Below the pieces are notes generated by a model that ran no database searches, was not told the DNA's origin, and worked only from the letters and a program-made list of their open reading frames with translations. The translations under genes and the position numbers were made by a program. From the NCBI GenBank assembly GCA_019689635.1, contig JADGHB010000017.1:1-56451 (forward strand): a stretch of DNA of 56,451 nt, read 5' to 3'. The stretch is from Nevskia sp. Its GTDB lineage: Bacteria > Pseudomonadota > Gammaproteobacteria > Nevskiales > Nevskiaceae. Shown piece after piece: positions 19,516 to 36,367 of this stretch. The first letter of the stretch is position 1; each line of letters starts with the position of its first letter.

Positions 19516-19965
19516 CTAGCGCCCTGATGGCGCCGGCAGCACCGCGACGCGACCGCCGCCGAGTTCGCGCGCGCCACAGCTCGCGCGCACGGCGTACAGC
19601 CAGCCGCGCGCGTCGGCGTGGAGCGGCTCGGCGTACAGCTCCAGCGCCGCGCCGAGGTCGTCGAGCCGCTCGACGGCGAAGCGGAATTCGCGCACCGCGG
19701 CGAGCCAGCCCGGCGCCGCGCGTTCGCCACGCGCGCGCGCGCGCAGGCCGCCGTGGATGGCCATGGCCTGCGCGCCATACTCGATCAGGTGCAGCGCGTC
19801 GAGTCGTCCATCCCGGCGCAGCGGGTGGGCGGGATCGAGATGCGTGTGCGTGCGCGCGCGCAGGTGCCGCGCATCCCAGCTCAGCACCTCGGTGATCAGG
19901 CACATGCGGCCGGCGTGCGGGATCAGCGCGCGGATTTCCTCGCTTCCGAGCGCGGCGGCGGTCAC
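19516..19965 (-). CDS. APE-cluster hotdog dehydratase (ApeP-like)
   Basis: A 149-residue hotdog-fold protein related to FabA/FabZ 3-hydroxyacyl-ACP dehydratases, as found in aryl polyene clusters. The core runs IRALIPHAGRMCLITEVLSW, a DPAHPLRRDGRLDA loop and HLIEYGAQAMAIHGGL, where the His and the Glu are candidate catalytic residues. It would dehydrate the beta-hydroxyacyl chain to add conjugated double bonds, with the second hotdog gene in this operon. The start is GTG at 19965, overlapping the chain-length-factor-like gene as GTGA. Confidence 0.82.
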   Translation of the reverse strand: MTAAALGSEEIRALIPHAGRMCLITEVLSWDARHLRARTHTHLDPAHPLRRDGRLDALHLIEYGAQAMAIHGGLRARARGERAAPGWLAAVREFRFAVERLDDLGAALELYAEPLHADARGWLYAVRASCGARELGGGRVAVLPAPSGR

Positions 19966-20759
19966 GGAAGGACGTCCACGCACAGCGCGCCGTGGCCGGC
20001 ATCCTCGAAGGTCGCGCGGCCGGCCGCGCCGCGCGCCAGCAGGTGCAGCAGCGGCAGCGCGCGCAGCGCGGGATTGGCAAGCCGTAGGGTTTCCAGCGCC
20101 GCGTCGTCCATGCGGCTGGGTTGCGCGCGCGCGACGCGCGCGATGCGCAGGCGGCCCAGGGCCTGCGGCAAGGCCCGGGCGGACAGCACCAGCGCCACGC
20201 TCGCGGCCAGCGCGATGGGGCGCTTTTCGTACAGCGGCGCCGGCGGTGGCACGTCGTAAACGACCAGCAGGGTGTCGAGATTCTCGCCGCCCGCCAGCAG
20301 GGTGGCTTCGAGCAGACCGGCGGCGAAGGAGGCGTCGTAGGCGCAGATCGTATTGGACGGCCCGCGCGCTGCCGTGGCGATGCTCCAGTAGCCGGCGGCG
20401 GCGTTGTGCACCGAGTTGTGAAAGTCGGTCGGCGAGAGTTGCGGCGCGGGATGGGCCAGCGTCTGGCAGATGCGGTGGATGATGCCGGTGTCGGCGTCGG
20501 AGGAGGCGAACACCGCCGCGAGCCGCTCGGCCGGCAGCGGCCAGCGTGCCAGCGCGTCTTCGGCGGCGCGGAACGCCAGGCGTACCGCCGGCGGTGCGCG
20601 GCGGCGCTCGTTGGGCGGTAGAAGCTGCGAGAAAGACGGGGGCAGTTCGGCGGCCACGTGAGGCGCTGCACCGCGCAGTACCGCGCAGGCCGTCGCCCAG
20701 TCCGGCAGGCCCGGGGCTGCGATGCCGGCCGCGGCGACGCTGAGCGTCATGCCGTTCAT
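19962..20759 (-). CDS. Half-length ketosynthase-like protein (chain-length-factor type, ApeC-like)
   Basis: A 265-residue protein matching only the N-terminal part of beta-ketoacyl synthases. The thiolase-fold segments TDFHNSVHNAAAGYWSIAT and GPSNTICAYDASFAAGLLEA are visible. At the nucleophile position of a true ketosynthase (C-S-S-S or C-A-S-G) this protein reads AYDAS, so the catalytic cysteine appears lost; Cys139 lies three residues too early. Such proteins in APE systems pair with the adjacent ketosynthase as a chain-length-factor analogue. Two ATG codons (20759, 20750) are possible; the first is used. It follows the ketosynthase by 58 bases and overlaps the hotdog gene by 4. Confidence 0.82.
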   Translation of the reverse strand: MNGMTLSVAAAGIAAPGLPDWATACAVLRGAAPHVAAELPPSFSQLLPPNERRRAPPAVRLAFRAAEDALARWPLPAERLAAVFASSDADTGIIHRICQTLAHPAPQLSPTDFHNSVHNAAAGYWSIATAARGPSNTICAYDASFAAGLLEATLLAGGENLDTLLVVYDVPPPAPLYEKRPIALAASVALVLSARALPQALGRLRIARVARAQPSRMDDAALETLRLANPALRALPLLHLLARGAAGRATFEDAGHGALCVDVLP

Positions 20760-20817
20760 CGGCGCCCCTGCCTCGGCGCGCGTTGCCGCGCTCGCGCCTG
20801 GCGCGCGCCATGGCGCC

Positions 20818-22008
20818 TCACGCGCGCGCTCCCAGCAGAAGGCTGCAATTGCTGCCGCCGAAGCCGAAGGAGTTGGAGAGTACGCGCCGGAGCGGCACGT
20901 GGCGCGTGCTCATCAGGATGGCGCCTTCGATCCGCGGATCCTTGCGGCGCGTGTTGAGGCTGCGCGGCAGAAAACCTTCGCGCAGGGCGAGCAGCGACAG
21001 CACCGCTTCCAGCGCGCCGGCGGCGCCCAGCGTGTGGCCGGTCCAGCCCTTGGTCGAGCTGCACGGCACGTCGCGCCCGAACAGCGCGCACAGCGCGCGG
21101 TCTTCGGCGAGATCGTTGGCCGGCGTGCCGGTGCCGTGCAGGTTGATGTAATCCACCTCCTGCGGCGCGATCCGGGCGCGCGCCAGCGCGGCGCGCATGG
21201 CGGCGATCGCGCCGCGCCCTTCGGGGTCGGGCGCCGACATGTGATGGGCGTCGCTGCTCTCGCCGTACCCTTCCAGGCGCCAGCGCGCGTCGCCGGCCTC
21301 GCGTTCCAGCAGGAGAAAAGCCGCCGCTTCGCCGAGCGACAGTCCGCTGCGTTCGGCGTCGGCCGGCCGGCAGACGTCGCGCGCCACCAGTTGCAAGGCG
21401 TGGAACCCGTACAAGGTGGTCAGGCACAGGCTGTCCACGCCGCCGACCACGGCCGCGTCGCACAGCCCGGCGCCGAGCGCGCGCGCCGCGGCGGCGAAAA
21501 CCTTGGCGCTGGACGAGCAGGCGGTGGAGATGGCCGCGCTCGGTCCGCAAAGCGCCAGGCGCCGGCGCACGTAGTCGGCGACTGCATAAGTGTTCTGCAT
21601 GGTGCGGTGCTGGAACCAGTCCGGCAGACGGTCCTCGCGCAGTTCGCGGTAGGCGCGCTCGGTCTCGCGCACGCCGGAGGTCGAGGTGCCGATGAACACG
21701 CCGACGCGCTGCGCGCCGTAGCGCGCCCGCGCGCGCTCCACGGCCGCGACGAATCCATCCTGGTTCAGGCCCAGCTCGGCCAGCCGGTGATTGCGGCAGT
21801 CCCAGGCGGACCACTGCGGCGGCAGCGGGATCTCCAGTCCGTCCACCGCGCCGATCCAGGTGTCGAGCGTGCAGTCCTCGAACGCCTGCCGCCTGAGACC
21901 GCTGCGTTCCTCGCGCAGCGCACGCGCGTGCGCCTCCAGCCCGCGGCCCAGCGCCGAGGTCGCGGTGAAGGCGGTGATGGCCGGCGGCTCAAAGTGCCTT
22001 GCGTTCAT
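20818..22008 (-). CDS. Beta-ketoacyl-ACP synthase of the APE cluster (ApeO-like)
   Basis: A 396-residue FabF-type ketosynthase. The catalytic triad is intact: nucleophile C164 in ISTACSSSAKVF, H291 in INLHGTGTPAND, and H325 in KGWTGHTLGAAG. The C-terminal NSFGFGGSNCSLLL loop is present. It condenses malonyl-ACP onto the growing aryl polyene chain, probably as a dimer with the neighbouring chain-length-factor-like protein. The ATG at 22008 overlaps the 3' end of the acyltransferase gene by 20 bases. A second ketosynthase ends the plus-strand operon, so the pathway has two active condensing enzymes. Confidence 0.9.
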   Translation of the reverse strand: MNARHFEPPAITAFTATSALGRGLEAHARALREERSGLRRQAFEDCTLDTWIGAVDGLEIPLPPQWSAWDCRNHRLAELGLNQDGFVAAVERARARYGAQRVGVFIGTSTSGVRETERAYRELREDRLPDWFQHRTMQNTYAVADYVRRRLALCGPSAAISTACSSSAKVFAAAARALGAGLCDAAVVGGVDSLCLTTLYGFHALQLVARDVCRPADAERSGLSLGEAAAFLLLEREAGDARWRLEGYGESSDAHHMSAPDPEGRGAIAAMRAALARARIAPQEVDYINLHGTGTPANDLAEDRALCALFGRDVPCSSTKGWTGHTLGAAGALEAVLSLLALREGFLPRSLNTRRKDPRIEGAILMSTRHVPLRRVLSNSFGFGGSNCSLLLGARA

Positions 22009-22936
22009 CGGGCTGCTCGCCGGGCCGCGCCGCGGACCAAAAGTCGTAGAAGTTGAACCAGTTGTCGGGGGCGGCGCGCGCGTAATGCTCCAGGCGCCGG
22101 GCGTAGCGTTCCACGCATGCGCGGATGAAGGCGTCGCGCTGCGCACGCGGCACGGCCTGTCCGTCGAGGAAGCGCTCGAAGTGTAGCGTGTAGCGGCGGC
22201 CGCCACGATACAGGCCGAAGCACAGCACCACCGGGGCCCCCAACACCGCCGCCAGCTTCCACGGCGCTTCCGGCAGCCGCGCGCGGGCGCCGAGGAACTC
22301 CACCGGCAATCCCCGGTCGCGGCCGGTGGTGCGATCGGCCATGAGGCCGACCAGGCAACCCTGCTGCAGGGCCTCGTGCAGCGCCAGGCCCAGTTGCGGA
22401 TGGCTGCGGCTGCCGTCGATGAGCTCGTCGGCCAGTTTCGGATTGAGCCGCGTCAACAGGCCCATGTAGATGCCGCCGTGGCGCTGATCCATCACGATGC
22501 GGTAGCGCACGCCGCGCCGCACCGCGCCGACCACCCGCAGCACGTCGTAGCTGCCCAGGTGCGCGGTCAACATCAACGCGCCGCCGCCACCATGCACGCG
22601 CGCCAGCACCTGCTGCGGATCGTGCACCGTCACCTCCAGTTCCTGATGGCGGCCGGCGAGCAGATAGACACGGTCCAGCGCGCAAGTCGCGAAAGCATAG
22701 AGCGTCCGCAGTACGCCCAGCGCGCCTTGTCGCGGTGCGCCCGCGCGGCGCAGGAACGCGCGCAGGCTGCGCCGCACCGGCCCGGCGGTGAGATAGAAGT
22801 AGAACACCACCGGCCCCAGCACCAAGCGCGCCACGCCGCGGCCCAGGCGCAGTGCGATCCAGGCCATCAGCGCGACCATCGCCGGCGAGCTGCGCTCGCG
22901 GCTGCGCTTCCATTCCGGCGTGGCGGCGGCGTTCAC
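21989..22936 (-). CDS. LpxL/HtrB-like lysophospholipid acyltransferase of the APE cluster
   Basis: A 315-residue membrane-associated acyltransferase. The HX4D catalytic motif is H126 to D131 in TAHLGSYDVL; DRTTGRDRGLPVEFLG and the substrate-pocket LPEAPWKLA follow, and the C-terminus has DNWFNFYDFW, typical of the lauroyl transferase family. In several APE clusters this domain is the C-terminal half of a glycosyltransferase-acyltransferase fusion (ApeJ type); here it stands alone while the GT2 enzyme is in the other operon. Probable role: acylating the lipid carrier of the pigment. The start is GTG at 22936, overlapping the hotdog stop as GTGA. Confidence 0.87.
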   Translation of the reverse strand: MNAAATPEWKRSRERSSPAMVALMAWIALRLGRGVARLVLGPVVFYFYLTAGPVRRSLRAFLRRAGAPRQGALGVLRTLYAFATCALDRVYLLAGRHQELEVTVHDPQQVLARVHGGGGALMLTAHLGSYDVLRVVGAVRRGVRYRIVMDQRHGGIYMGLLTRLNPKLADELIDGSRSHPQLGLALHEALQQGCLVGLMADRTTGRDRGLPVEFLGARARLPEAPWKLAAVLGAPVVLCFGLYRGGRRYTLHFERFLDGQAVPRAQRDAFIRACVERYARRLEHYARAAPDNWFNFYDFWSAARPGEQPDERKAL

Positions 22937-23253
22937 GGCGGCGCGGGAGAGAACGACAACTCGCCCTGCGCGGCGAGGCCGTCCGCGGTTTCGTAGCGGA
23001 ACGCCGCGCGGCCGCGCGCGGCTTCGACGCGCAGGCTGAGCTGCAGGGGCCCGCCCGGCGGCACGGGACGCAGGAATTTGGCTGCGGGCACGCCCGTCAC
23101 CCGCACCGCGCCCAGGCGTTCGCGCAGCGTGGCGGCCGCGAGGTCCAGGAGCAGCACGGCCGGCAGTAACGGCCGGCCGGGGAAATGGCCGGCGAGGCAG
23201 GGATGATGCTCCGAGACCTCGACGATGGTATGGAAATCCAGCGTCCGCGTCAC
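22933..23253 (-). CDS. FabZ-like hotdog dehydratase of the APE cluster (ApeI-like)
   Basis: A 106-residue single hotdog domain. The FabZ signature is present as HPCLAGHFPGRPLLPAVLLLDL, with the catalytic His in GHFPGRP. The protein is shorter than FabZ (about 150 residues) and lacks its C-terminal extension, as is usual for ApeI-type members. It would act on 3-hydroxyacyl-ACP intermediates of the polyene. The start is GTG at 23253 in a GTGA overlap with the ligase gene; the end overlaps the acyltransferase GTG. Confidence 0.82.
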   Translation of the reverse strand: MTRTLDFHTIVEVSEHHPCLAGHFPGRPLLPAVLLLDLAAATLRERLGAVRVTGVPAAKFLRPVPPGGPLQLSLRVEAARGRAAFRYETADGLAAQGELSFSPAPP

Positions 23254-24557
23254 AGCAGTTCGCGCAGCGCCGCGCGCGCCAGTTTGCCGACGTCGTTGCG
23301 CGGCAGGCGTTCGACTTTGCGCAGCGGCCGCGGCAGGAACACCGGATCGATCAGCCGTGCGAGCGCGGCGCGGATTTCGCGCTCGGAAAGCCGCGGCGCC
23401 ACCACCAAGGCCGCCGGACGGGACAGCACGTCCTGCGCGGCACCGGCCTCCGGCTGGAACACGATGCCGTCGATCACGCCGGGAATGGACAGTAGCTTCT
23501 GCGTGAGGTCGGCGAGCGAGGCGCGCTTGCCGGCGACTTTGAGCATGTCCGCCGCACGGCCGAGGAGACGGAAGCCGCCATCGCAAGCTTCGAGCACGTC
23601 CTGCAGCGGAACTGGTTGCGGCAGATGCACGCCGCGCGCGGAACATCCGCCCGCCTGGTACTCGATGGTCACGCCCGGAAGCGGCTGCCACGGTTCGCCG
23701 GCCAGCGTGCGCCGCGTCGCCAGGCTGCCGGCCTCGGAGCAGCCGTAGATCTCGTGCACCGGGGCGGAGAATTGGGCTTCGGCGCGCTCCGCCAGCTCGC
23801 ACGGCAGTGGCGCGGTCGCGGAAATCACGCCGGCGAGTTCGGGAAGTTTCGTCCCCGATGCGAGCAGGGCGCGGATGTGCACCGGCGTGGTGACCAGGAT
23901 GCGCGGTGCGGGCAGCTCGTCCAAGGCGGTGCGCACGTCGGGCGGGAACACCGGCCGGCCGCGGTGCACGCCGTGGCCACCGGCCAGGGCCAAGAGCACG
24001 CTCGCCTCCAGGCCGTACATGTGCTGGGGCGGCACGGTGGCCACGATGTGGCAGCGGCCGTGGCCGTCGAGCAGACGCCGCGCCAGTTCTTGGCCGGCGT
24101 GCGAGAGCGCGTGCCAGGGTTTGCGGATCGGCTGCGGCGCGCCGGTGCTGCCGGAGGTGTAGACGATGGCCACGCACAGGTCGGCGGCCAGCGCTGGCAG
24201 CTCGACCCGAGGCGCCGGGTCGCGCGGGGCCGCGGTCCGTGGCAGGACCAGCTCGACCGCGCAGGTGGGATGGTCGCCGATGGCATAGGCGCCCGGGTGG
24301 TCGGCGCGGACCGCGGCCAGGGCGCTGGCATGGCCGCTCGGCGGCAGCAACGCCGGCTGGCCGCGCAGCGCGAGCGCGGCGAAGGCGAGCGCGAAGCAAT
24401 AACGGTCTTCGCACAGGTTCAACGCGGCGGGAGCGTCCGGCAAGCGAGCGGCCAGTTCCAGCGCGGCCTGTGCGAACTGTGCGCGTGTGATCGTCGCGCC
24501 GCGGTGCAGGAACAGCGGCGCGTTTGCCTCCGCCGGCGCGAGCAGGGGCAGTTTCAC
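23250..24557 (-). CDS. AMP-dependent acyl-ACP ligase of the APE cluster (ApeH-like)
   Basis: A 435-residue member of the adenylate-forming family. The P-loop is VYTSGSTGAPQPIRKPW (residues 132-148), followed by YGLEASVLLAL, ATAPLPCEL, EIYGCSEAGSLATR (A5-like) and GRAADMLKVAGKR (A8-like hinge); the terminal Lys region is RNDVGKLAR. It is about 100 residues shorter than typical acyl-CoA synthetases, as in APE clusters. It probably activates the hydroxybenzoate starter and loads it on one of the two ACPs. The start is GTG at 24557 within the stop of the membrane protein gene. Confidence 0.87.
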   Translation of the reverse strand: MKLPLLAPAEANAPLFLHRGATITRAQFAQAALELAARLPDAPAALNLCEDRYCFALAFAALALRGQPALLPPSGHASALAAVRADHPGAYAIGDHPTCAVELVLPRTAAPRDPAPRVELPALAADLCVAIVYTSGSTGAPQPIRKPWHALSHAGQELARRLLDGHGRCHIVATVPPQHMYGLEASVLLALAGGHGVHRGRPVFPPDVRTALDELPAPRILVTTPVHIRALLASGTKLPELAGVISATAPLPCELAERAEAQFSAPVHEIYGCSEAGSLATRRTLAGEPWQPLPGVTIEYQAGGCSARGVHLPQPVPLQDVLEACDGGFRLLGRAADMLKVAGKRASLADLTQKLLSIPGVIDGIVFQPEAGAAQDVLSRPAALVVAPRLSEREIRAALARLIDPVFLPRPLRKVERLPRNDVGKLARAALRELL

Positions 24558-25183
24558 GGCGCCGCCTCCGGTTCCTTGGCGTAACGGCCCGCGAATGGTG
24601 GCCGGCGGCGCAGCGTCAGGCGCAGGGATTCCAGGAAACCCGGCTGCGGCAGCCCGCGAAAACGCCAGCGGCGCCAGGCGTATTCGGTCACGAACACCGC
24701 GGCGAGCAGCGCGTAGGCGCCGAGATTGGCGAATTCCGACCAGCGCCGCGCGTCGCCCTCGAAGACGAGCAGGAGTTCGGTCCCGAGCAATGCGGCGATG
24801 ACCGCCGTCCACAGCCAGGTCACGGCGCGGGTATAGGCGAGCAGCGCCGGCGACATGGGGTCGTGAGCGGCGGCGGCGATGCGCGTCACCAGCGGGGTGC
24901 GGCCAGGCAGCAGCGTGGCCGCGAAAGCGCACAGCACGACGGCGGGCAGCGTGATCGAGGGCAGGTACAGCGCCCAGCGCCCGGCGCCGGCGATCAATAG
25001 CAAGGCGTAGCCCGCGCCCAGGGCGGCCAGTCCCAGCCAGGCGCCGCCCGCGCGGCGCGCCAGGGGCACGTAGAGCACGCCGGCGGCAAGCGCCATCGCG
25101 CCGGCCCATTGCAGTGCCGGTCGCTGCTCGATGACCGATAGATGCGTCAGCACCGGGTAGGCGGCGAACAGGCACCAGCGCAT
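24554..25183 (-). CDS. COG4648-type membrane protein of the APE cluster (ApeG-like)
   Basis: A 209-residue integral membrane protein with five or six hydrophobic segments, such as YALLLIAGAGRWALYLPS and TWLWTAVIAALLGTELLLV, and a charged C-terminal tail (LTLRRRPPFAGRYAKEPE). It belongs to a family found almost only in aryl polyene clusters (COG4648). Its biochemical role is not known; scaffolding of the synthase at the membrane is one idea, without sequence proof. The ATG at 25183 lies 20 bases after the ACP gene. Confidence 0.8.
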   Translation of the reverse strand: MRWCLFAAYPVLTHLSVIEQRPALQWAGAMALAAGVLYVPLARRAGGAWLGLAALGAGYALLLIAGAGRWALYLPSITLPAVVLCAFAATLLPGRTPLVTRIAAAAHDPMSPALLAYTRAVTWLWTAVIAALLGTELLLVFEGDARRWSEFANLGAYALLAAVFVTEYAWRRWRFRGLPQPGFLESLRLTLRRRPPFAGRYAKEPEAAP

Positions 25184-25203
25184 GGAAGGGCTTGGTTCGG
25201 CGT

Positions 25204-25482
25204 TCAGACGGCTTGGACGGCGCGCTGGTGCGCGATGTAGTCGGCCAAGGCCGCCAGCGACGCGAAGGCGCGGCGCGTGGCCTCGTCCTCGGCGCGCAGC
25301 TCCACGCCGTATTTCTGCTGCACCGCCAGCGCGATCTCCAGCGCGTCGATCGAGTCCAGCCCCCAGCCCTGGCCGGGTTCGCCGAACAGCGGTGCGGCGG
25401 GATCGACGTCGTCCACGCGCTTGTCCTCGAGGTTGAGCGCTGTGATCAGCAGGGCGGCCAGTTCGCGTTCGTTGTCCTTCAT
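25204..25482 (-). CDS. Acyl carrier protein 1 of the APE cluster
   Basis: A 92-residue carrier protein. The phosphopantetheine attachment site is Ser44 in GWGLDSIDALEI, preceded by an acidic helix I (LLITALNLED) and followed by helix III (SLAALADYI). It carries the starter or the growing polyene as a thioester. A phosphopantetheinyl transferase is not encoded in the window. The ATG is 10 bases after the methyltransferase stop. It is one of two ACPs in the cluster; the second is at 28537. Confidence 0.9.
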   Translation of the reverse strand: MKDNERELAALLITALNLEDKRVDDVDPAAPLFGEPGQGWGLDSIDALEIALAVQQKYGVELRAEDEATRRAFASLAALADYIAHQRAVQAV

Positions 25483-25492
25483 CGTCGCTCCG

Positions 25493-26278
25493 TCAGCACG
25501 TCGGATTTTGCGCAGTGTATTCGCTGAACACGCCGAACACCGTGCGCCGCTGCACTGCCTGGAAGCCGGCCTGGCGCAGGGCGGCCAGGATGGTTTCCGG
25601 CGACACGCAGTGTTCGATGGTGTCCCAGTAGTAGCGCATGAGCTGCGCCGGGGCGCGTCCGCGGCCGCAGGTGCGGGTGGCCAGCGGCACCAGGCTGCGC
25701 AGGTAGAAACGCAGCGCCGCATGCCCCAGGGCGTTGCGCGGGCGAGTGATTTCCAGCAGCAGGAGACCGCCCCCCGCTCTGAGTACGCGGCGGAATTCGC
25801 GGAAAGTGGCGGCGAGATCGGCGACGTGGCGCAAGGCGTAGCCCATGGTCAGGCGGTCGAAACTGGCGTCGGCGAACGGCAGGCGCTCGGCCCAGCCTGG
25901 CACCGTGCGCCGCACCCCGCGGTCGCGCGCCCGCGCCAGCATGCCCTGGCTGGGATCGAGCGCCACCACCAGGCCGCCGTTGCCGACCAGCGGCTGCGCC
26001 AGCGCGGCGATCATGCCCGTGCCGCTACCCACGTCCAGCACGCGCTGGCCGGGTCCGACGCCGGCACGGCGCAAGGCCTCGCGCCGATAGCGCCGGCCGG
26101 AGCCGAAGCTCATCACGGCATTGATCCAGTCGTAGTCGCCCGCGGCCGCGTCGAACCACTGCCGCACCCTGCGGGTCCGTCCCGCCTCGTCGGAGTAGTA
26201 CTCGCGCAGCGGCGGATGGGGCGGCAGCGGTCCAGCGACGACGGGCGAGGGATCGTCAGTGGCGGGCGCGACCGGCAC
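25493..26278 (-). CDS. UbiE-like SAM-dependent methyltransferase of the APE cluster
   Basis: About 261 residues from GTG at 26278. Class I methyltransferase motifs: YDWINAVMSFGSGRRYRREA, motif I VLDVGSGTGMIAALA, motif II VALDPSQGML, post-II ERLPFADASFDRLTMGYALRHV and LLLLEITRP. These are the signatures of the UbiE/MenG group. In APE pathways methyltransferases modify the aryl head; the site here is unknown. An in-frame ATG at 26455 would add 59 residues, but their codons have many A/T third positions (AAT, GTT, ATT, TTA, TTT, TAT), unlike the rest of the gene, so I treat that stretch as promoter DNA. The methyltransferase domain itself is firm; the start is not. Confidence 0.8.
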   Translation of the reverse strand: MPVAPATDDPSPVVAGPLPPHPPLREYYSDEAGRTRRVRQWFDAAAGDYDWINAVMSFGSGRRYRREALRRAGVGPGQRVLDVGSGTGMIAALAQPLVGNGGLVVALDPSQGMLARARDRGVRRTVPGWAERLPFADASFDRLTMGYALRHVADLAATFREFRRVLRAGGGLLLLEITRPRNALGHAALRFYLRSLVPLATRTCGRGRAPAQLMRYYWDTIEHCVSPETILAALRQAGFQAVQRRTVFGVFSEYTAQNPTC

Positions 26279-26571
26279 CCGCAACGATCCCGAACGCTCG
26301 GCCGGGAAGGGCCGGGCAGGATGCTGCGGAGTGCGGCTCAGATGCGCCACGGGCGGCAGGGAATGAAACGTGCAAGTGGCATAAGGAATCGTGACGAGAT
26401 CGGCGCAGTGAAAACGGTGTGGCGGTAAAATGTCGGTCGAACGAACTTGATTCATGCCCCGCTTGCGCCGGCTCCCCCGAGCGGCGGCAGCGTCCCCGCA
26501 ACAATGCATTTTATATGAGAACGGCGCCGCAGAAAGGTGTACCGGCTCGCGGCTTGGGAGATACTGGACTC
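26279..26571. promoter_or_regulatory. Bidirectional promoter region of the APE cluster
   Basis: This 293-base gap between the divergent methyltransferase and chorismatase genes contains the lowest-GC DNA of the cluster (about 26380-26525). The plus strand has CATTTTATATGAG (about 26504-26517) as a candidate -10 region, 55-60 bases before the chorismatase ATG. The minus strand is rich in T tracts near 26400-26440 but has no clean -35/-10 pair. Both operons are probably driven from here. No regulator gene is adjacent. Confidence 0.55.
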
Positions 26572-28415: not shown

Positions 28416-28490
28416 GACGTCCTGTGTCATCGCCTTGCCGAGTCCGCGCGGTCTCATGGGCGCGCCGAGCTCGTGACGGATGCGGGCCAG

Positions 28491-28515
28491 GACCCCAATG
28501 CCACGCGTTGGGGTC
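28491..28515 (+). terminator. Hairpin inside the APE operon, upstream of the ACP gene
   Basis: GACCCCAA (28491-28498) and TTGGGGTC (28508-28515) are perfect complements with a 9-nt loop, followed by TTCC. It lies in the only sizeable gap (28416-28536) near the start of the plus operon, 21 bases before the ACP ATG. It could attenuate transcription, stabilise the downstream mRNA end after cleavage, or form a leader that sets ACP expression. A classical intrinsic terminator would need a longer T-run. Confidence 0.4.
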
Positions 28516-28536
28516 TTCCACGTTGCGCGTGCCGCG

Positions 28537-28821
28537 ATGAGCGCCGAGCCGCCCGCCGTGCCCTTGCCTGCGCTCACGCGCGAGGAAATCCTCGAACGGC
28601 TGCGCCGCATCCTCGTCGAGCAGTTCGAAGTCGAAGCGGCGCAGGTGAGGCTTGCGGCGCGCTTCCGCGAGGACCTCGACATCGACAGCATCGACGTGGT
28701 GGACCTGGTGCTGGAGCTGCGCAAGCTCACCGGCCTGGCGCTGGAGCCGCGGCAGTTCCGCGGCGTGGAGACGGTGGCCGAGGCGGTGGAGCTGGTGCAC
28801 GGTCTGCTTGTCGCCCGCTGA
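28537..28821 (+). CDS. Acyl carrier protein 2 of the APE cluster
   Basis: A 94-residue carrier protein. The phosphopantetheine site is Ser51 in REDLDIDSIDVVDLVLEL. Helix I is REEILERLRRILVEQF, and an acidic linker precedes the site. It has a Pro-rich N-terminal tail of about 13 residues (MSAEPPAVPLPAL). The ATG at 28537 is preferred to an ATG at 28480 whose 19 extra residues are basic, would read through the hairpin and do not resemble carrier proteins. Its stop overlaps the GT2 start (TGATG). Confidence 0.88.
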   Translation: MSAEPPAVPLPALTREEILERLRRILVEQFEVEAAQVRLAARFREDLDIDSIDVVDLVLELRKLTGLALEPRQFRGVETVAEAVELVHGLLVAR

Positions 28822-29585
28822 TGTTCCGCCCCTGCATCGTCATCCCCTATTACCGGCACGAACGCGCCATCGGTGCCCTGATCGAGCGCCTGCGCGGGTT
28901 CGGGCTGCCGTGCTTCCTCGTTGACGACGGCAGCGGGGGCGCCGCTGCCGCGGTGGTGCGCGAGCTGGCCGCGCGCGAAGCCGGCTGGCTGCGCCTGCAG
29001 GTCTTGCCCCGCAACCAGGGCAAGGGCGTGGCGGTGATGAGCGGTTGCGCGGCGGCGGCGGCGGAAGGCTACAGCCACGCACTCCAGATCGACGCCGACG
29101 GCCAGCACGCCACGGCGGATGTGCCGCGCCTGCTCGCGCTCGCCCGCGCCGCGCCCGCGGCGGTGGTTACCGGCGTGCCGGTGTACGACGCCTCCGCTCC
29201 GCGCGTGCGGATCTATGGGCGTTATCTCACCCACGCGCTGGTGTGGCTGCATACCCTGTCGTTCGAGATCCGCGATTCGATGTGCGGTTTCCGCGTCTAT
29301 CCGCTGGCGCCGCTGCTCGCGCTCGAGCGCGCGGGCGGCCTCGGCCGGCGCATGGATTTCGACACCGACGTCCTGGTGCGCTTGCACTGGACCGGCGTGC
29401 GCGTGATTTCCATGCCCACGCGCGTGACCTATCCCGCCGACGGCGTCTCGCACTTCGATTATCTCGCCGACAACGCGCGCATGGCGCGGCTGCATCTGCG
29501 CTTGTTCTTCGGCATGCTCGCCCGCCTGCCGCGCTGGGGCTGGCGCCGCTTGCGCGGCCTGCCGGCCCGGAGCGCCGTGGCGTGA
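28821..29585 (+). CDS. Family 2 glycosyltransferase of the APE cluster
   Basis: A 254-residue GT-A fold enzyme. Motifs are CIVIPYYRHE at the N-terminus, LVDDGSGG (first Asp pair), NQGKGVAVMSGC, LQIDADGQH (DxD for metal/nucleotide sugar), then DSMCGFRVYP and FDTDVLVRLHWTG. This is the DPM1-like group also found as the N-terminal half of ApeJ fusion proteins in other APE clusters. It probably attaches a sugar as part of the pigment's lipid anchor. The ATG starts on the last base of the ACP stop; the end overlaps the LolA-like gene. Confidence 0.88.
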   Translation: MFRPCIVIPYYRHERAIGALIERLRGFGLPCFLVDDGSGGAAAAVVRELAAREAGWLRLQVLPRNQGKGVAVMSGCAAAAAEGYSHALQIDADGQHATADVPRLLALARAAPAAVVTGVPVYDASAPRVRIYGRYLTHALVWLHTLSFEIRDSMCGFRVYPLAPLLALERAGGLGRRMDFDTDVLVRLHWTGVRVISMPTRVTYPADGVSHFDYLADNARMARLHLRLFFGMLARLPRWGWRRLRGLPARSAVA

Positions 29586-30229: not shown

Positions 30230-30235
30230 CCGCGG

Positions 30236-32629
30236 ATGAGCGCGCCGAAGGGTGTGCGGTTGCGCTACTGGCTGTGGAGCGCATTCGCGGCCGCGGTCTT
30301 GATCGCGTTCGCGGCCGGCGCACCGCGCTTGAAGCTGCAGACCGACATCCTCGCGCTGCTGCCGCCCGCCGCCGAGGACGCGGGCGAGGCGCGGGCGCTG
30401 GCGCGCTTCGCCGACCAGCTCGGGCGACAGAACGTGTTCCTGGTCGGCGCCGCGGATTTCGCGACGGCGCGCGCCGCCGCGCAAGGCTTCGCGCAGACGC
30501 TCGCCGCTTCGCCGGCGTTTGCCGGCGTGCAATGGCAGGTGCCGTCGGACTGGCTGCAGCGCGCGGCGGCGGCCTACGCGCCGTACCGCGCCGGCCTGCT
30601 GGCGCCGCAGACGCGCGCCTGGCTCGAAGCGGGCAACGACGCTGCGCTGCTCGCCCGCGCGCGCGCGGCCCTGTACACGCCCGCCGCCTTCCTGCGCGCG
30701 AGCGGCGCGGGCGACGATCCGCTCGACCTGTTCGGCGATTTCCTCGCCTCCGCGCTGCCGGCGCAGGGCGCGTTGACGCTGCGCCAGAACGTGCTGACGC
30801 TGCGCGCGCCGCCGCCGGACGGAAAGACTTACGTCCTGGTGCGCGCCCAGCTCGCCGACAACGCCTTTTCCACCGCGGAGGAGGATGCCGCCGCGCGCGA
30901 CCTGTCGGCGGCATACGCCGCGGCGCACCGCCGGGGGGCGACCGTCATCGGTTCGGGTCTGATCCTGCACGCGGTGGCCGCCGCGCAGCTCGCGCGCCAC
31001 GAGGTGAACCTGTTCGGCGGCGTGCAGCTCGCGGTGCTGAGCGCGCTGTTGCTGTGGGTGTTCCGTTCGCCGCGCATGCTGCTCGGCGCGGCGGCGACGC
31101 TGGCGCTGGGCGTGGCTGCGGCCCTGGTCGTGTGCCAGCGGGTGTTCGGCGAGGTGCACGTGCTGACGCTGGTGTTCTGCAGCAACCTCGCCGGCATCGC
31201 GGTGGACTACTCGATCTACTACGCCGCCGACCAGTTCCGCACGCCCGGCCGTTGGCGCGCCGAGTCCGCGCTGCCGCACCTCGGCGGCGCCATCGCCGTC
31301 AGCGGGGCGGTCGCGCTGCTCTCCTATGCCTTGCTGGCGTGGGCGCCGTTCCCCGGCTTGCGACAGATGGCGCTGTTCTGCTGCGTGGGACTGGCGCTGG
31401 CCTGCGCCAGCGTGCTGGCCTGGTTCCCGCGCTGGCTGCGCCCGGCCGGCGCGGCGCACGCCGAAACGCTCCATGCCGTGTTCGTGCGCCTGGCGGCATG
31501 CCGCGAACGTTGCGCCATGCGGCTGCCGCGCGCGCTGTGGCTGATCCTCGCCGTGGCGGTGGCGCTCGGTCTGGCGCGGCTGCGCTTCGTGGACGACGTC
31601 AGCGTGCTCCAGCCGCACTTGCCTGAACCGCTCGCCCAGGAAAAGCAGGTGCGCGCCCTGCTGGGCAGCGTGCCGGACAGCGCGTTCTTCCTGGTGCGCG
31701 GCGCGGACCCCGAGGCGGTGCTGGAGAACGAGGAGCGTCTGCGCGCCCGCCTGGACGCTTTGCAAGCGCGCGGCGCGCTCGCCGACTACCGTGCGCTGTC
31801 GCGCGGCCTGCCGTCGGAGAGGACCCAGGCGCGCGATCGCGCGCTGCTCGCCGCGCGGGTGTACGGCGCCGACGGACTGCTCGCGCGCTTCATGCGCGAG
31901 CTGGGCTTCCCGCCGGCGGCAATCGCGCAGCAACAGGCGGAGTTCGCGGCGCAAACCACGCCGCTGGCGCTCGACCGCTGGATCGACACGCCCGCCGCGG
32001 AGCCTTACCGAGCGCTGTGGCTCGGCGACATCGCGCGCACGCGCGGCCCGCCGCTGTACGCCAGCGTGGTGACGCTGACCGGCATCGCCGATGCGGCAGC
32101 GCTGCGCGCCGCGGCGCAGGGTTTCCCCGGCGTGCGCTACGTGGACCGCGTGGCCGAGGTGTCCGGCGTGCTGCACCGTTACCGCCGGATCGCGCTCGCC
32201 GTGGTCGCCGCCTCGGTGCCGGTGTCCTTGCTGCTGTTCGCCTGGCCTTACGGCTGGCGCAGCGCGTTCTCGCTGATGCTGGCGCCGACCGCGGCGCTGC
32301 TGGCGACGCTCGCGGTGCTGGGCTTAAGCGGCGTGACGCTGAGTTTTTTCAACGTCGTCGCGCTGCATCTGGTGCTGGGCCTGTCCATGGAATACTCGCT
32401 GCTGTTGCGATTGCCGCGGCTGAGCGGCCCGGCCAGCCTGCTCGCGGTGGTGTTGGCGGCGGGCCTGGCGCTGATCGCCTTCGGCTTGCTGGCGTTGAGC
32501 CGCACGCCGTTCATCCACGCCCTGGGATCGACGGTGGCCGTCGGCGTGGTGTGCGGCTTGGTCTTGGCCGCGGCGCTCGGTACGATGCCCACCGTCGGCT
32601 CGATAAGGGAGGGGGCGGGTGAACGCTGA
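30236..32629 (+). CDS. MMPL/RND-family exporter of the APE cluster
   Basis: A 797-residue inner-membrane transporter of the MMPL type: one N-terminal helix (YWLWSAFAAAVLIAFA), a periplasmic domain of about 200 residues, a five- to six-helix bundle (residues about 255-420), a second periplasmic domain, and a second bundle. The mid-membrane SNLAGIAVDYSIYYAADQFR carries the Asp of the proton relay (VDYSIYY), and FNVVALHLVLGLSMEYSLLL is its counterpart in the second half. It probably extracts or moves the aryl polyene lipid toward the periplasm. Its last 11 bases overlap the halogenase-like gene. Confidence 0.88.
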   Translation: MSAPKGVRLRYWLWSAFAAAVLIAFAAGAPRLKLQTDILALLPPAAEDAGEARALARFADQLGRQNVFLVGAADFATARAAAQGFAQTLAASPAFAGVQWQVPSDWLQRAAAAYAPYRAGLLAPQTRAWLEAGNDAALLARARAALYTPAAFLRASGAGDDPLDLFGDFLASALPAQGALTLRQNVLTLRAPPPDGKTYVLVRAQLADNAFSTAEEDAAARDLSAAYAAAHRRGATVIGSGLILHAVAAAQLARHEVNLFGGVQLAVLSALLLWVFRSPRMLLGAAATLALGVAAALVVCQRVFGEVHVLTLVFCSNLAGIAVDYSIYYAADQFRTPGRWRAESALPHLGGAIAVSGAVALLSYALLAWAPFPGLRQMALFCCVGLALACASVLAWFPRWLRPAGAAHAETLHAVFVRLAACRERCAMRLPRALWLILAVAVALGLARLRFVDDVSVLQPHLPEPLAQEKQVRALLGSVPDSAFFLVRGADPEAVLENEERLRARLDALQARGALADYRALSRGLPSERTQARDRALLAARVYGADGLLARFMRELGFPPAAIAQQQAEFAAQTTPLALDRWIDTPAAEPYRALWLGDIARTRGPPLYASVVTLTGIADAAALRAAAQGFPGVRYVDRVAEVSGVLHRYRRIALAVVAASVPVSLLLFAWPYGWRSAFSLMLAPTAALLATLAVLGLSGVTLSFFNVVALHLVLGLSMEYSLLLRLPRLSGPASLLAVVLAAGLALIAFGLLALSRTPFIHALGSTVAVGVVCGLVLAAALGTMPTVGSIREGAGER

Positions 32630-33884
32630 AACGCCGGTGGATGTGCTGGTGATCGGGGCGGGACCGGCCGGCGCGGCGGCGGCGGCTTTGTCGCGGCAGC
32701 GCGGGCTGTCGGTGCGCGTGCTGGAGAAAACGCGCTTTCCGCGCTTTTCCATCGGCGAGAGCCTGCTGCCACAGTGCCTGGGCTTGCTGCAGGAGGCGGG
32801 CATGCTGGCGGCGGTGGAGCGCTTCGGGTTCCAATACAAGGACGGCGCGCAAATCGCGCGCGGCAGCCGCAAGGTCGATTTCGTGTTCTCGCACAAGATC
32901 AGCGCCGGCCACGACTATGCCTACGAAGTGACGCGCGCGGACTTCGATCAGATCCTGATCGACGAAGCGCAACGCCAGGGCGCGGAAGTGCGCTACGAGC
33001 ACGAAATCACCGCCGCGGCCTTCGATGCGCAGGGCGCGACGCTCGCCGTGCGCGATGCCGCCGGCCGCGAAAGCCGCCACCGGGCGCGCTTCGTGTTCGA
33101 CGCCAGCGGCTTCGGCCGCATCCTGCCGCGTCTGCTCGGCCTGGACGTGCCGGCGGATTTCCCGGTGCGGTCTTCGTTGTTCATGCACGTGGAGGACCGC
33201 ATCGCCGAGGCGGACTTCGACCGCAACAAGATCCGCGTCGCCATCCATCCGCAGCACGAAGACGTGTGGTACTGGCTGATCCCGTTCTCCCAGGGGCGCG
33301 CCTCGGTCGGCGTGGTGGCGGAGGACGCTTTCCTGCAGCGCTACTCGGGGAACGCCACCGAACGCTGGCGCGCGCTGATCGACGAGGAGCCGGGGCTCAA
33401 GCGCATGCTGCGCCACGCCCGGCCGCTATGGCCGCAGGCGCGCGAGATTCGCGGCTATGCCAGCGCGGTGTCGCGCATGCACGGGCCGCACTACGCTCTG
33501 CTCGGCAACGCCGGCAAATTCCTCGACCCGGTGTTTTCCTCCGGCGTCACCATCGCGCTCAAATCCGCCTCGCTGGCGGTGCCGCTGGCGTGCCGCGAAC
33601 TGGGCGGCGAGACGGTGGATTGGGAGGCGGAGTTCACTCAGCCGCTGATGCTGGGCGTGGACACGTTCCAGGGCTATGTCGAAACCTGGTACGAGGGCGC
33701 GCTGCAGACCATCATGTTCAGCCCGCGCCGTCCGCAGCGCGTGTACGAGCTTTTGTGCAGCGTGCTCGCCGGCTACGCCTGGGATCCGGCCAACCCCTAC
33801 GTGGGCCAATCCGGCCGCCGCCTGCGCGCCCTGGCGCAGACCATCCGCGCTGAGGAAGCGGATGCCGCGCGGATTGCTCATTAG
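32619..33884 (+). CDS. Flavin-dependent halogenase-like monooxygenase of the APE cluster
   Basis: A 421-residue FAD enzyme. Dinucleotide motif GAGPAG (13-18), then RFPRFSIGESLLPQ as in halogenases. The Lys in GFQYKDGAQ (K74) is at the place of the conserved catalytic lysine of carrier-protein-type halogenases. WYWLIP (217-222) fits the WxWxIP signature, and FLDPVFSSG (301-309) fits the FxxPxxSxG motif. Xanthomonadins are brominated aryl polyenes, so halogenation of the ring or chain is a plausible role. Some APE clusters whose products are not halogenated have relatives, so an oxidase or reductase role remains possible. The start is GTG at 32619, overlapping the exporter. Confidence 0.83.
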   Translation: MNAETPVDVLVIGAGPAGAAAAALSRQRGLSVRVLEKTRFPRFSIGESLLPQCLGLLQEAGMLAAVERFGFQYKDGAQIARGSRKVDFVFSHKISAGHDYAYEVTRADFDQILIDEAQRQGAEVRYEHEITAAAFDAQGATLAVRDAAGRESRHRARFVFDASGFGRILPRLLGLDVPADFPVRSSLFMHVEDRIAEADFDRNKIRVAIHPQHEDVWYWLIPFSQGRASVGVVAEDAFLQRYSGNATERWRALIDEEPGLKRMLRHARPLWPQAREIRGYASAVSRMHGPHYALLGNAGKFLDPVFSSGVTIALKSASLAVPLACRELGGETVDWEAEFTQPLMLGVDTFQGYVETWYEGALQTIMFSPRRPQRVYELLCSVLAGYAWDPANPYVGQSGRRLRALAQTIRAEEADAARIAH

Positions 33885-34404
33885 CGCATCGCTCGCGCTC
33901 GCCGGCTGCGCGCTGTTGCCGAAGGCGTCGCCGCCGAGTCCGCCGCTGTTGCCGCCCGCCGCGCTGGGCGCTGCGCATCAGGCGCAGCAGGTGCTGCACG
34001 CGCACTTCGGCGAGCGCGAAATCGCCTTGCAGTGCGCCTTGGTGGCCGATTCCGCGGCGGTGACGCTGGTCGCCGTCGGGGCGCTGGGACGGCGCCTGTT
34101 CACCGCCAGCTACGATGGCACGCGCCTGAACGCCCAGACCGATCCGCAGGCGCAGTTGCCGCTGCCGCCGGAGCGCGTGCTGGCGGACGTGCAATTCGCG
34201 CTGTGGCCGCTGGCGGCCTGGCAGTCGCGGCTGGAAGGGAGCGCTTGGCAGATCGAACAGCCCCAGCCGGGCCTGCGCCGGCTGAGCTACCGCGGCCGTT
34301 GGTACGAAGAAGTGCTGTACGGCGATGCGGCGCATCCCTGGCGCGGACGCCTGCGGATCGCCAATTTCGCGCTGGGTTATACGCTGGACATCGTTCCCCA
34401 ATGA
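33862..34404 (+). CDS. DUF3261 lipoprotein of the APE cluster
   Basis: A 180-residue lipoprotein. The signal peptide ends in LAGC with Cys16 lipidated. The mature part has AQQVLHAHFGEREIALQCALV, FTASYDGTRLN and PEKV/ PERVLADVQFALWPLAAW, then LSYRGRWYEEVLYG. DUF3261 proteins are recurrent members of APE clusters and are thought to help place the pigment in the outer membrane. The start overlaps the halogenase-like gene by 23 bases; the stop overlaps the ketoreductase ATG (ATGA). Confidence 0.83.
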   Translation: MPRGLLISASLALAGCALLPKASPPSPPLLPPAALGAAHQAQQVLHAHFGEREIALQCALVADSAAVTLVAVGALGRRLFTASYDGTRLNAQTDPQAQLPLPPERVLADVQFALWPLAAWQSRLEGSAWQIEQPQPGLRRLSYRGRWYEEVLYGDAAHPWRGRLRIANFALGYTLDIVPQ

Positions 34405-35141
34405 ACGCCGACCCTCCACGCCGCTGGATCCTCGTCACCGGCGCCAGCCGCGGCATCGGCCGCGCCACGGCGCTGCGCCTGGCCCGCGACGGTTTCGGGG
34501 TGGTGGTCCACTGCCGCGCCGACGCCGCGCGCCTGGAACCGCTGTGCGCGGAGATCGCGCGCGCGGGCGGGCAGGCGCGCGCCCTGGCGTTCGAGCTCGC
34601 CGACCGGGCGGCCTGCGCCCAGGCCATCGAGTCCGACATCGCCGCGCACGGCGCCTACTACGGCGCGGTGTGCAATGCCGGACTCACGCGCGACACCGTG
34701 TTCCCCGGCATGAGCGGCGAGGATTGGGACGCGGTGCTGCGCGCCAATCTCGACGGCTTTTACAACGTGCTGCAGCCGCTGCTGCGCCCGCTGCTGCGCA
34801 TGCGCCGCGGCGGGCGTATCGTGGTCTTGTCCTCGGCCTCCGGCGTGATCGGCAATCGCGGCCAGGTGAACTACAGCGCGGCCAAGGCCGGCCTGATCGG
34901 CGCCGCCAAGGCGCTGGCGCTGGAGCTGGCCAGCCGCGGGGTCACGGTCAACTGCGTGGCGCCGGGCTTGATCGAAACCGACATGATCGCCGCCGTCCCG
35001 CGCGAGGCGCTGCTCGAGCGGATCCCCGCCGGCCGCGTCGGTACGCCGGAGGAAGTCGCCGCGCTGATCGCCTTCCTGTGCTCCGACGCCGCGGCCTACA
35101 TCACGCGCCAGGTGATCGGCATCAACGGCGGATTGATATGA
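34401..35141 (+). CDS. FabG-like 3-ketoacyl-ACP reductase of the APE cluster (ApeQ-like)
   Basis: A 246-residue short-chain dehydrogenase. The cofactor loop is VTGASRGIGRAT (about 12-23), NAG is at C-NAGLTRD, and the catalytic set is S145 in VLSSASG, Y158 and K162 in NYSAAKAG, with NAN-equivalent N116 in LRANLDGF. The C-terminus has the PGLIETDM and INGG elements of FabG. It reduces the beta-keto group between rounds of chain extension. ATGA overlap upstream and downstream (next ATG at 35138). Confidence 0.92.
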   Translation: MNADPPRRWILVTGASRGIGRATALRLARDGFGVVVHCRADAARLEPLCAEIARAGGQARALAFELADRAACAQAIESDIAAHGAYYGAVCNAGLTRDTVFPGMSGEDWDAVLRANLDGFYNVLQPLLRPLLRMRRGGRIVVLSSASGVIGNRGQVNYSAAKAGLIGAAKALALELASRGVTVNCVAPGLIETDMIAAVPREALLERIPAGRVGTPEEVAALIAFLCSDAAAYITRQVIGINGGLI

Positions 35142-36367
35142 GGCGCCGTGTCGCCGTGACCGGCATGGCGGGCATCACCGCCCTGGGCTGCGACTGGAAC
35201 AGCATCGAGGCCGCGCTGCGCGCGCAGCGCTCCGGCGTGGTGGCGATGCCGGAATGGAATCGTTATGCCGATCTGCGGACGCGGCTCGCCGCGCCGGTGC
35301 CGGACTTCGTGCCGCCGCCGCACTTCACGCGCAAGAAGACGCGCGCCATGGGCCGCGTGGCGCTGCTGGCCGCGGTCAGCGCCGAGGCCGCGCTGCGCGA
35401 GGCCGGCCTGCTCGAGGATCCCGTCCTCAGCAGCGGCCACGTCGGTGTGGCGTACGGTTCCGCCACCGGCGCCACCGACGCCATGCTGGAGTTCGCCCAC
35501 CTGCTGATCGACGGCCGCATGGACCGCGTCAACGGCACGACCTATCTGCGCATGATGAGCCACAGCGCCGCGGTAAACATCGGAGTCTATTTCGGTCTCA
35601 AAGGCCGCGTGATCCCGACTTCCAGCGCCTGCACCTCCGGCAGCCAGGCGCTCGGCGCGGCTTACGAGACGATCCGCGCCGGCCAGCAGACGGTGATGAT
35701 CGCCGGTGGCGCGGAAGCCTTGTGTCCCACCGAGGCGGCGGCGTTCGACACGCTCGGGGCCACCAGCACCGCCAACGACGCGCCGGGCACTACGCCGCGG
35801 CCGTTCGACGTCGCGCGCGACGGCCTGGTGATCGGCGAGGGCGCCGCCACGCTGATCCTGGAGGACTGGGACCACGCCCGTGCACGAGGAGCACAGATCC
35901 ACGCCGAACTGGTCGGCTACGCCACCAACTCGGACGGCGCGCATTTGACCCAGCCGAGCGCGGAGACCATGGCCGTCGCGCTCGAGCTGGCGCTGGCCGA
36001 CGCCGCGCTCGGCCCCGCGGCGATCGGTTACGTCAACGCGCACGCCACCGCTACCGAGGCCGGCGACATCGCCGAGTCGCACGCCACGCGCGCGGCGCTG
36101 GGTCGCGCCGTGCCGGTCAGCAGCCCCAAGGGCCACCTCGGCCACACGCTCGGGGCCTGCGGCGCGATCGAGGCGTGGTGGACGGTGGAGATGCTCAAGC
36201 GCGGCTGGTTCGCCCCCACGTTGAACCTGCACGATCCCGATCCGCGCTGTGCCGAGCTGGATTACCTGATGGACGAGGGGCGCGCGTTGCAGTGCGAATA
36301 CGCGATGAGCAACAACTTCGCCTTCGGCGGCATCAACACTTCGCTGATTTTTCGCCGCGTCGCCTGA
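35138..36367 (+). CDS. Beta-ketoacyl-ACP synthase II type, APE cluster (ApeR-like)
   Basis: A 409-residue FabF-type ketosynthase with an intact triad: C165 in TSSACTSGSQALG, H302 in VNAHATATEAGD and H336 in KGHLGHTLGACG, plus NNFAFGGINTSLIF near the C-terminus. It is the second active condensing enzyme; in other APE systems a separate FabF-like enzyme probably makes the first condensation or supports chain initiation. It is the last gene of the plus operon. The start overlaps the ketoreductase stop by 4 bases. Confidence 0.92.
   Translation: MRRRVAVTGMAGITALGCDWNSIEAALRAQRSGVVAMPEWNRYADLRTRLAAPVPDFVPPPHFTRKKTRAMGRVALLAAVSAEAALREAGLLEDPVLSSGHVGVAYGSATGATDAMLEFAHLLIDGRMDRVNGTTYLRMMSHSAAVNIGVYFGLKGRVIPTSSACTSGSQALGAAYETIRAGQQTVMIAGGAEALCPTEAAAFDTLGATSTANDAPGTTPRPFDVARDGLVIGEGAATLILEDWDHARARGAQIHAELVGYATNSDGAHLTQPSAETMAVALELALADAALGPAAIGYVNAHATATEAGDIAESHATRAALGRAVPVSSPKGHLGHTLGACGAIEAWWTVEMLKRGWFAPTLNLHDPDPRCAELDYLMDEGRALQCEYAMSNNFAFGGINTSLIFRRVA

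What the first reader, a model, noticed from the sequence alone, without database searches (positions are those of the whole stretch)
19516..36367. Complete aryl polyene pigment cluster in two divergent, translationally coupled operons
Seen: about 19 genes covering two active ketosynthases, a half-length ketosynthase, ketoreductase, two hotdog dehydratases, two ACPs, AMP ligase, two acyltransferases, GT2, COG4648 protein, LolA-like, MMPL, DUF3261 and tailoring enzymes. Established: this set defines aryl polyene (flexirubin/xanthomonadin-like) pathways of Gram-negative bacteria. Not found here: a hotdog thioesterase of the ApeK type and a phosphopantetheinyl transferase. Most junctions are ATGA/GTGA overlaps, unusual in density.
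Basis: partly seen in the sequence, partly recalled or inferred. Interest (0 to 1): 0.7.

Follow-up and report, generated by a model that had tools for sequence, protein, structure and literature searches.

The report
Xanthomonadin-type pigment gene cluster
This stretch is a complete-looking set of genes for making a yellow, probably halogenated, membrane pigment of a well-known kind, and the gene that makes its starter molecule probably also feeds the cell's respiratory quinone; it is a good but essentially ordinary example.

Summary
Nineteen genes at 19516-36367, in two divergent operons, form an aryl polyene (APE) cluster: the best solved matches of both ketosynthases and of the half-size chain-length factor are APE enzymes. 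26572-27603 is a FkbO/Hyg5/XanB2-family chorismatase and 32619-33884 keeps the flavin-halogenase lysine and WxWxIP. This makes it a xanthomonadin/arcuflavin-type cluster, as in Lysobacter, Xanthomonas and Azoarcus. The draft genome shows no UbiC, one chorismatase and a UbiA, so the pigment gene probably also supplies 4-hydroxybenzoate for ubiquinone, as XanB2 does in Xanthomonas. Lack of a PPTase gene is also reported for E. coli's cluster, and of a thioesterase for Lysobacter's. 'Most junctions are 4-nt overlaps' is not confirmed: 6 of 17 are, though 10 of 17 overlap. The same layout occurs in 6 of 20 fetched relatives' loci. Verdict: new member of a known kind. Side leads: a Cys-to-Ser change in chorismatases of same-genus genomes without the APE marker, and an apparently missing Gln in the chain-length factor.

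The parts
19516..19965 (-). ApeP-like hotdog dehydratase subunit
   Evidence: no Pfam/NCBIfam hit at E 0.01; only PDB hit 6qsr_B, a FabA/FabZ-named dehydratase chain, E 0.0017; that 6qsr is the ApeI:ApeP complex is recalled
19962..20759 (-). ApeC-like half-length ketosynthase (chain-length factor)
   Evidence: PF13723; PDB hits only 7f28_A and 6qsp_B
20818..22008 (-). ApeO-like elongating ketosynthase
   Evidence: PRK09185 521 bits (cut-off 407); best PDB 6qsp_A and 7f28_B; Cys-His-His in sequence
21989..22936 (-). lipid A-type acyltransferase with HX4D
   Evidence: PF03279; HLGSYD
22933..23253 (-). ApeI-like FabA/FabZ hotdog dehydratase
   Evidence: weak FabA/FabZ hits, Pfam below cut-off
23250..24557 (-). 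AMP-forming aryl:ACP ligase (ApeH/ArcT role)
   Evidence: PF00501; 4-coumarate-CoA ligase model below cut-off
24554..25183 (-). small membrane protein in the ApeG (COG4648) position
   Evidence: no family hit; 3 hydrophobic segments; beside the ACP in relatives
25204..25482 (-). ACP (ApeE-like)
   Evidence: PRK09184 105.7 bits, cut-off 70
25493..26278 (-). UbiE-like SAM methyltransferase (aryl head methylation, inferred)
   Evidence: PF01209; start chosen, frame open to 26509
26572..27603 (+). chorismatase, FkbO/Hyg5/XanB2 family; 3-hydroxybenzoate (and probably 4-hydroxybenzoate) synthase
   Evidence: PF21168 120 bits; TIGR04444 200.6 bits, below its cut-off of 325; PDB Hyg5 5ag3; Cys, Gly and Glu kept, third subfamily Gly replaced by Ala; frame open from 26419
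27639..28415 (+). PlsC-type acyltransferase with HX4D (ApeD-like)
   Evidence: PF01553; NHPSLID
28537..28821 (+). second ACP (ApeF-like)
   Evidence: PRK05350 83.5 bits, cut-off 65
28821..29585 (+). GT2 glycosyltransferase
   Evidence: PF00535
29582..30229 (+). LolA-like periplasmic carrier
   Evidence: PF19574, PF03548; flexirubin LolA2 model weak
30236..32629 (+). MMPL/RND exporter
   Evidence: PF03176; 13 hydrophobic segments
32619..33884 (+). flavin-dependent halogenase-like protein
   Evidence: PDB 3nix first, then halogenases ChlB4, 8zop, 3e1t, 5buk; Lys and WYWLIP kept
33862..34404 (+). DUF3261 protein, lipobox-like LAGC start
   Evidence: PF11659 98.9 bits; sequence
34401..35141 (+). 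ketoreductase (ApeQ-like by position, inferred)
   Evidence: PRK05653.1-5 359 bits, cut-off 273; best PDB 7caw, named FabG
35156..36367 (+). ApeR-like second ketosynthase
   Evidence: PRK09116 662 bits, cut-off 470; best PDB 4ewg and 7f27; Phe118, Tyr135, Phe202 and His268 of AbApeR kept
26279..26571 (.). divergent intergenic region, presumed promoters
   Evidence: position; no sigma-70-like site found

Best explanation
A xanthomonadin/arcuflavin-type aryl polyene cluster of a Nevskia-related gammaproteobacterium. The chorismatase turns chorismate into 3-hydroxybenzoate, and probably some 4-hydroxybenzoate. The AMP ligase loads 3-hydroxybenzoate onto the ApeE-like ACP. ApeO/ApeC elongate it with malonyl units, ApeR helps in early rounds, and the KR and the ApeI/ApeP dehydratase pair reduce and dehydrate each unit to a conjugated polyene. 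The UbiE-like enzyme methylates and the flavin enzyme halogenates the aryl head. The two acyltransferases and the GT2 attach the polyene to a lipid, and MMPL, LolA-like and DUF3261 proteins carry it to the outer membrane as a yellow photoprotective pigment. Family membership is shown here; every reaction is inferred from characterised relatives. With no UbiC found and only one chorismatase in the draft genome, the cluster's chorismatase probably also supplies the ubiquinone precursor.
For: Domain content. Best PDB relatives of both KSs and the half-KS are APE enzymes, identified in PMC8358021: 6QSP ApeO-ApeC, 7F28 AbApeO-AbApeC, 7F27 AbApeR, 4EWG an ApeR homologue. Chorismatase matches Hyg5 and FkbO structures and keeps the catalytic Glu and two of the three residues named for the 3-HBA-forming subfamily. 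Halogenase lysine and WxWxIP present. The chorismatase query hits 43 of 80 named CLF loci, many of them cut short. UbiC in 0 of 61 genomes; chorismatase in 56 of 61, one copy in the window genome; UbiA 341 bits, cut-off 275. In L. enzymogenes, deleting the chorismatase homologue cut pigment by about 90% and 3-HBA restored it (passages read).
Against: No product or expression data. The third residue named for the 3-HBA-only subfamily (Gly-164 of Nat-hyg5) is Ala here, so the enzyme is not a strict Hyg5 type; the Azoarcus authors say the reaction cannot be predicted accurately from sequence alignment alone. TIGR04444 scored below its curated cut-off. The halogenase-like gene could be another flavoenzyme: its best structural match 3nix is named only flavoprotein/dehydrogenase. 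No sigma-70-like promoter in the divergent gap. The genome is a 101-contig draft without a 16S match, so a UbiC or a second chorismatase could lie in a gap.
Confidence: 0.85

Rival explanations
1. An E. coli-type APE cluster that uses 4-hydroxybenzoate as starter, with the chorismatase there only for ubiquinone.
For: ApeR, second ACP, methyltransferase and COG4648-position genes resemble the E. coli set; the XanB2 type makes 4-HBA too; the Gly-164 position is Ala, unlike the 3-HBA-only subfamily.
Against: The chorismatase sits in the cluster and keeps the Cys and Gly named for the 3-HBA-forming subfamily; 41 of 41 readable chorismatases of named CLF loci keep that Cys (42 examined).
Confidence: 0.14
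2. A fatty-acid or other lipid pathway rather than a pigment.
For: KR and KSs belong to the FabG and FabF/FabB superfamilies.
Against: ApeC-type half-KS, chorismatase, aryl ligase and halogenase-like gene together; a separate KS in a 430-aa frame lies on another contig (G000:C57).
Confidence: 0.01

Closest known systems
Xanthomonadin-like 'yellow' cluster of Lysobacter enzymogenes (PMC3691225; passages and one section read)
   Same: KS plus half-KS pair, KR, two DHs, AT, ACP, ORF15 pigment-modifying gene (dolichyl-phosphate mannose synthase type), LolA-like, exporters, XanB2-type gene; no thioesterase in the cluster
   Different: Window has a halogenase-like gene, a UbiE-like methyltransferase, a second ACP and an ApeR-type KS, and two divergent operons; the paper says the halogenase is absent in L. 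enzymogenes and the methyltransferase missing from its cluster
Arcuflavin cluster of Azoarcus sp. BH72 (PMC3949708; passages read)
   Same: XanB2-type chorismatase, halogenase, methyltransferase, AMP ligase, KS plus half-KS, GT, LolA, exporter
   Different: Azoarcus genes lie in separate loci, with dialkylresorcinol genes in another; none of the 19 cluster proteins here was assigned to that pathway
E. coli CFT073 APE cluster (PMC8253772; passages read)
   Same: Counterparts by family or position of ApeB, C, D, E, F, G, H, I, J, L, M, O, P, Q and R; no PPTase gene in the cluster
   Different: No gene assigned to ApeA or ApeK (their sequences were not compared directly); chorismatase in place of UbiC; added halogenase-like gene; two divergent operons instead of one direction

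Membership tests
Aryl polyene cluster | ApeO-type KS paired with a half-length ApeC | tested here: met
   structure names
Aryl polyene cluster | KR plus two hotdog dehydratases, ACP and aryl AMP ligase | tested here: met
   ApeP by one weak PDB match only; the ApeI-like protein below Pfam cut-off
Aryl polyene cluster | lipid-attachment and export genes (acyltransferases, GT2, LolA, MMPL, DUF3261) | tested here: met
Aryl polyene cluster | yellow conjugated polyene product | not testable with these tools
   needs culture or expression
Xanthomonadin/arcuflavin type | XanB2-type chorismatase in the cluster | tested here: met
   family match and catalytic Glu and Cys; subfamily and product not tested; TIGR04444 below cut-off
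[quoted passage not shown]
   Gly-231 and Cys-318 positions met; Gly-164 position is Ala
Xanthomonadin/arcuflavin type | halogenated aryl head (flavin halogenase) | tested here: inconclusive
   motifs kept; activity untested; halogenase reported absent in L. enzymogenes too
Flexirubin / arcuflavin hybrid | dialkylresorcinol (Dar) genes | not tested
   none assigned among the 19 cluster genes; the whole genome was not searched for them
E. coli-type APE cluster | ApeK thioesterase in the cluster and 4-HBA from UbiC | tested here: not met
   no 4HBT-family hit among the cluster proteins; UbiC not found in the draft genome

The most novel reading that the evidence does not exclude
In this genus the chorismatase tracks the pigment. 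Genomes with the APE marker (CLF) carry a Cys-type enzyme, genomes without it a Ser-type at the Hyg5 Cys327 position, perhaps a 4-HBA-only enzyme kept for ubiquinone. That would make the residue a natural product switch between pigment and respiration. In the genus, 8 of 9 readable CLF-positive genomes are Cys (a tenth, G011, is cut off) and 8 of 8 CLF-negative genomes are Ser. But the tree needs only two changes, G013 is an exception, and 26 CLF-negative genomes outside the genus keep Cys.
Probability: 0.2. Interest if true: 0.45.

Novelty: new member of a known kind. Interest (0 to 1): 0.25.

Why it matters
It places the xanthomonadin-type APE pathway, with its own chorismatase and a halogenase-like gene, in Nevskia-related bacteria with a recurrent two-operon layout. 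It also gives a case where an 'accessory' pigment gene is probably the only source of the ubiquinone head group, so its deletion should affect respiration as well as colour.

Tried and rejected
Primary fatty-acid synthesis: rejected. Finding 16S for naming: no match in the draft; the genus was inferred instead from same-genus contigs whose lengths equal those of named records. Promoter and terminator scan around the divergent gap: nothing. The idea that the Cys/Ser residue is a clean marker of pigment across the order: rejected; it holds only in the genus, with one exception. The CLF marker is imperfect: G042 gave no CLF match although its locus L058 carries other APE-like genes, and the G001 match is a fragment at a contig edge. 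Literature: one paper holds both 'Nevskia' and 'xanthomonadin', on Luteibacter (listing only); the twelve listed papers (of 270) hold no 'Solimonas'. This is weak evidence that these clusters are undescribed in print; ten searches in all.
Full report
What is there. My gene caller finds 19 genes at 19516-36367: nine on the minus strand, ten on the plus strand, separated by a divergent gap of 293 bp with the starts chosen. Pfam and NCBIfam identify a Ketoacyl-synt_2 half-ketosynthase, two ketosynthases, a FabA/FabZ-like dehydratase, an AMP ligase, two ACPs, a UbiE-like methyltransferase, two acyltransferases, GT2, LolA, MMPL, a flavin enzyme, a chorismatase, DUF3261 and a ketoreductase. Two proteins, 19516-19965 and 24554-25183, had no Pfam or NCBIfam hit. 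The first matches a dehydratase chain, 6qsr_B, at E 0.0017. The second looks like a membrane protein by hydropathy.

Aryl polyene membership. The half-KS matches only two PDB chains, 7f28_A and 6qsp_B. The KS at 20818 has 6qsp_A and 7f28_B as its best two. PMC8358021 (passages read) gives 6QSP as ApeO-ApeC of Xenorhabdus doucetiae, 7F28 as AbApeO-AbApeC, 7F27 as AbApeR, and argues that 4EWG is an ApeR. The KS at 35156 has 4ewg and 7f27 as its only matches under 1e-90. Against the AbApeR residues named in that paper it keeps Phe118, Tyr135, Ala163, Phe202, Leu229 and His268 at an offset of 5, and Leu336 and Phe392 at an offset of 4 (the alignment has a one-residue shift by its end); Leu201 is Ala. 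That 6qsr is the ApeI:ApeP complex is recalled; the paper does not mention it.

The plus-strand leader gene is a chorismatase: PF21168 at 120 bits (cut-off 27), TIGR04444 at 200.6 bits though its cut-off is 325, and PDB Hyg5 5ag3 at 3e-45. PMC7170507 (passages read) names Gly-164, Gly-231, Cys-318 and the catalytic Glu-325 for the 3-HBA-forming Nat-hyg5. Placed through Hyg5 by the alignment, the window has the Gly-231, Cys-318 and Glu equivalents but Ala at Gly-164. Gly is rare there in its relatives too: 2 of 58 chorismatases of the genome set, and 1 of 42 in named CLF loci (38 Ala, 1 Cys, 2 gapped). So it is not a strict Hyg5 type; that this fits the XanB2 type is my inference. The flavin enzyme aligns with ChlB4, 8zop, 3e1t and 5buk with its lysine and a WxWxIP (WYWLIP) in register (the roles of these motifs are recalled). 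The lysine is kept in 15 of 15 readable rows of 16 and the full WxWxIP in 14 of 16. Xanthomonadin, arcuflavin and L. enzymogenes clusters carry a XanB2-type gene. The L. enzymogenes paper reports no thioesterase in its cluster, and the E. coli paper no PPTase in its cluster and only partial loss of colour without ApeK. So the two 'not found' items are unremarkable.

Link to ubiquinone. UbiC (PF04345) was found in 0 of 61 genomes including the window's, with E. coli ringing as control. Chorismatase is in 56 of 61, one copy in the window genome and that one in this cluster. UbiA is present at 341 bits, cut-off 275. The inference that one enzyme serves both pathways follows XanB2 of Xanthomonas (PMC5069965 and PMC3949708, passages).

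Relatives. In L039 and L048 a homologue of the quinone oxidoreductase that flanks the window cluster is the next match beside ApeP. No KS_R match lies between KR and the next matched gene in L039 and L049. Of 80 named CLF loci, many cut short and only the best 80 of 536 relatives kept, 78 hit KS_O, 77 ApeP, 61 KR, 43 the chorismatase and 33 the halogenase-like query, some of the last at only 22-35% identity. Several of these are the same contigs as. The window genome's genus includes MAGs named Nevskia sp., by equal contig lengths, but also contigs titled Rhodospirillales and Sinobacteraceae; the naming is an inference.

Junctions. 6 of 17 same-strand junctions are 4-nt overlaps, 1 is a 1-nt overlap, and 10 of 17 overlap at all; elsewhere in the window 4 of 26 overlap (p=0.007). 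The cluster is compact, but 'most' is not right.

Side results. Chorismatase residue: of 58 chorismatases 55 are readable, 44 with Cys and 11 with Ser. Cys with CLF 18, Cys without 26, Ser with CLF 2, Ser without 9. Within the genus it is 8 Cys and 1 Ser among CLF-positive genomes (one more unreadable), 0 and 8 among CLF-negative. The tree needs two changes, so the evidence is two events, not 17. My p value for this table left out the window genome and ignores kinship, and I do not rely on it. Chorismatases in named CLF loci: 41 of 42 Cys, one truncated. Chain-length factor: the L. enzymogenes paper says a Gln (Q166) is shared by all its homologues and that changing it abolished pigment. The only majority-Gln column in 81 aligned sequences has Gln in 54; 27 differ, with Leu in the window and 18 others. 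That this column is Q166 is inferred from position. Halogenase: the window copy is 78-81% identical to copies in G003, G006 and G008, where it lies beside the chorismatase past ApeP, but 65-66% to the copies in the same place in G005, G012 and G017. Its tree groups it with the former (98/99), whereas the KS tree does not resolve the window's place.

Judgement. This is a well-formed new member of the xanthomonadin/arcuflavin type of APE cluster. Specialists would not be surprised; the side leads are modest.

Noticed in passing
26572-27603; same-genus Ser-type loci L032, L034, L035, L036, L038, L069, L072, L077 (CLF-negative) and L067 (G013, CLF-positive): Chorismatases of the 8 same-genus genomes without the CLF marker have Ser where the Hyg5-type Cys is; 8 of 9 readable CLF-positive ones have Cys. 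Two changes on the tree; G013 is an exception.
   Followed up: partly
20295-20297, CLF residue 155 (gene 19962-20759): A Gln reported as shared and essential in the half-size chain-length factor of Lysobacter appears to be Leu here and differs in 27 of 81 aligned homologues; the column assignment is inferred.
   Followed up: partly
32619-33884: Halogenase-like gene is 78-81% identical to copies at a different place in three same-genus clusters but only 65-66% to copies in the same place in three others, suggesting transfer or gene replacement.
   Followed up: partly
L041:7819-8109, L045:11735-12076, L096:1286-1609, L098:2484-2807, L100:2551-2898, L104:2202-2570: Relatives carry an extra small hotdog gene between the second ACP and the GT2, a place where the window has none (28821); possibly a thioesterase or third dehydratase.
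   Followed up: no
G000:C35:12666-13463 (L001) and G000:C25:2174-3016 (L003): A 2094-aa open frame with a ketosynthase domain and a 504-aa frame with another on a 3.5-kb contig, perhaps a separate polyketide pathway.
   Followed up: no
L181, L182 (G056, G055): Genomes with an APE-like cluster in which neither chorismatase nor UbiC was found: the source of their hydroxybenzoate is unclear.
   Followed up: no
37213-39657: TonB-dependent receptor with an N-terminal carboxypeptidase-regulatory-like domain beside the cluster; a homologue lies past the halogenase-like gene in L050 and L178.
   Followed up: no
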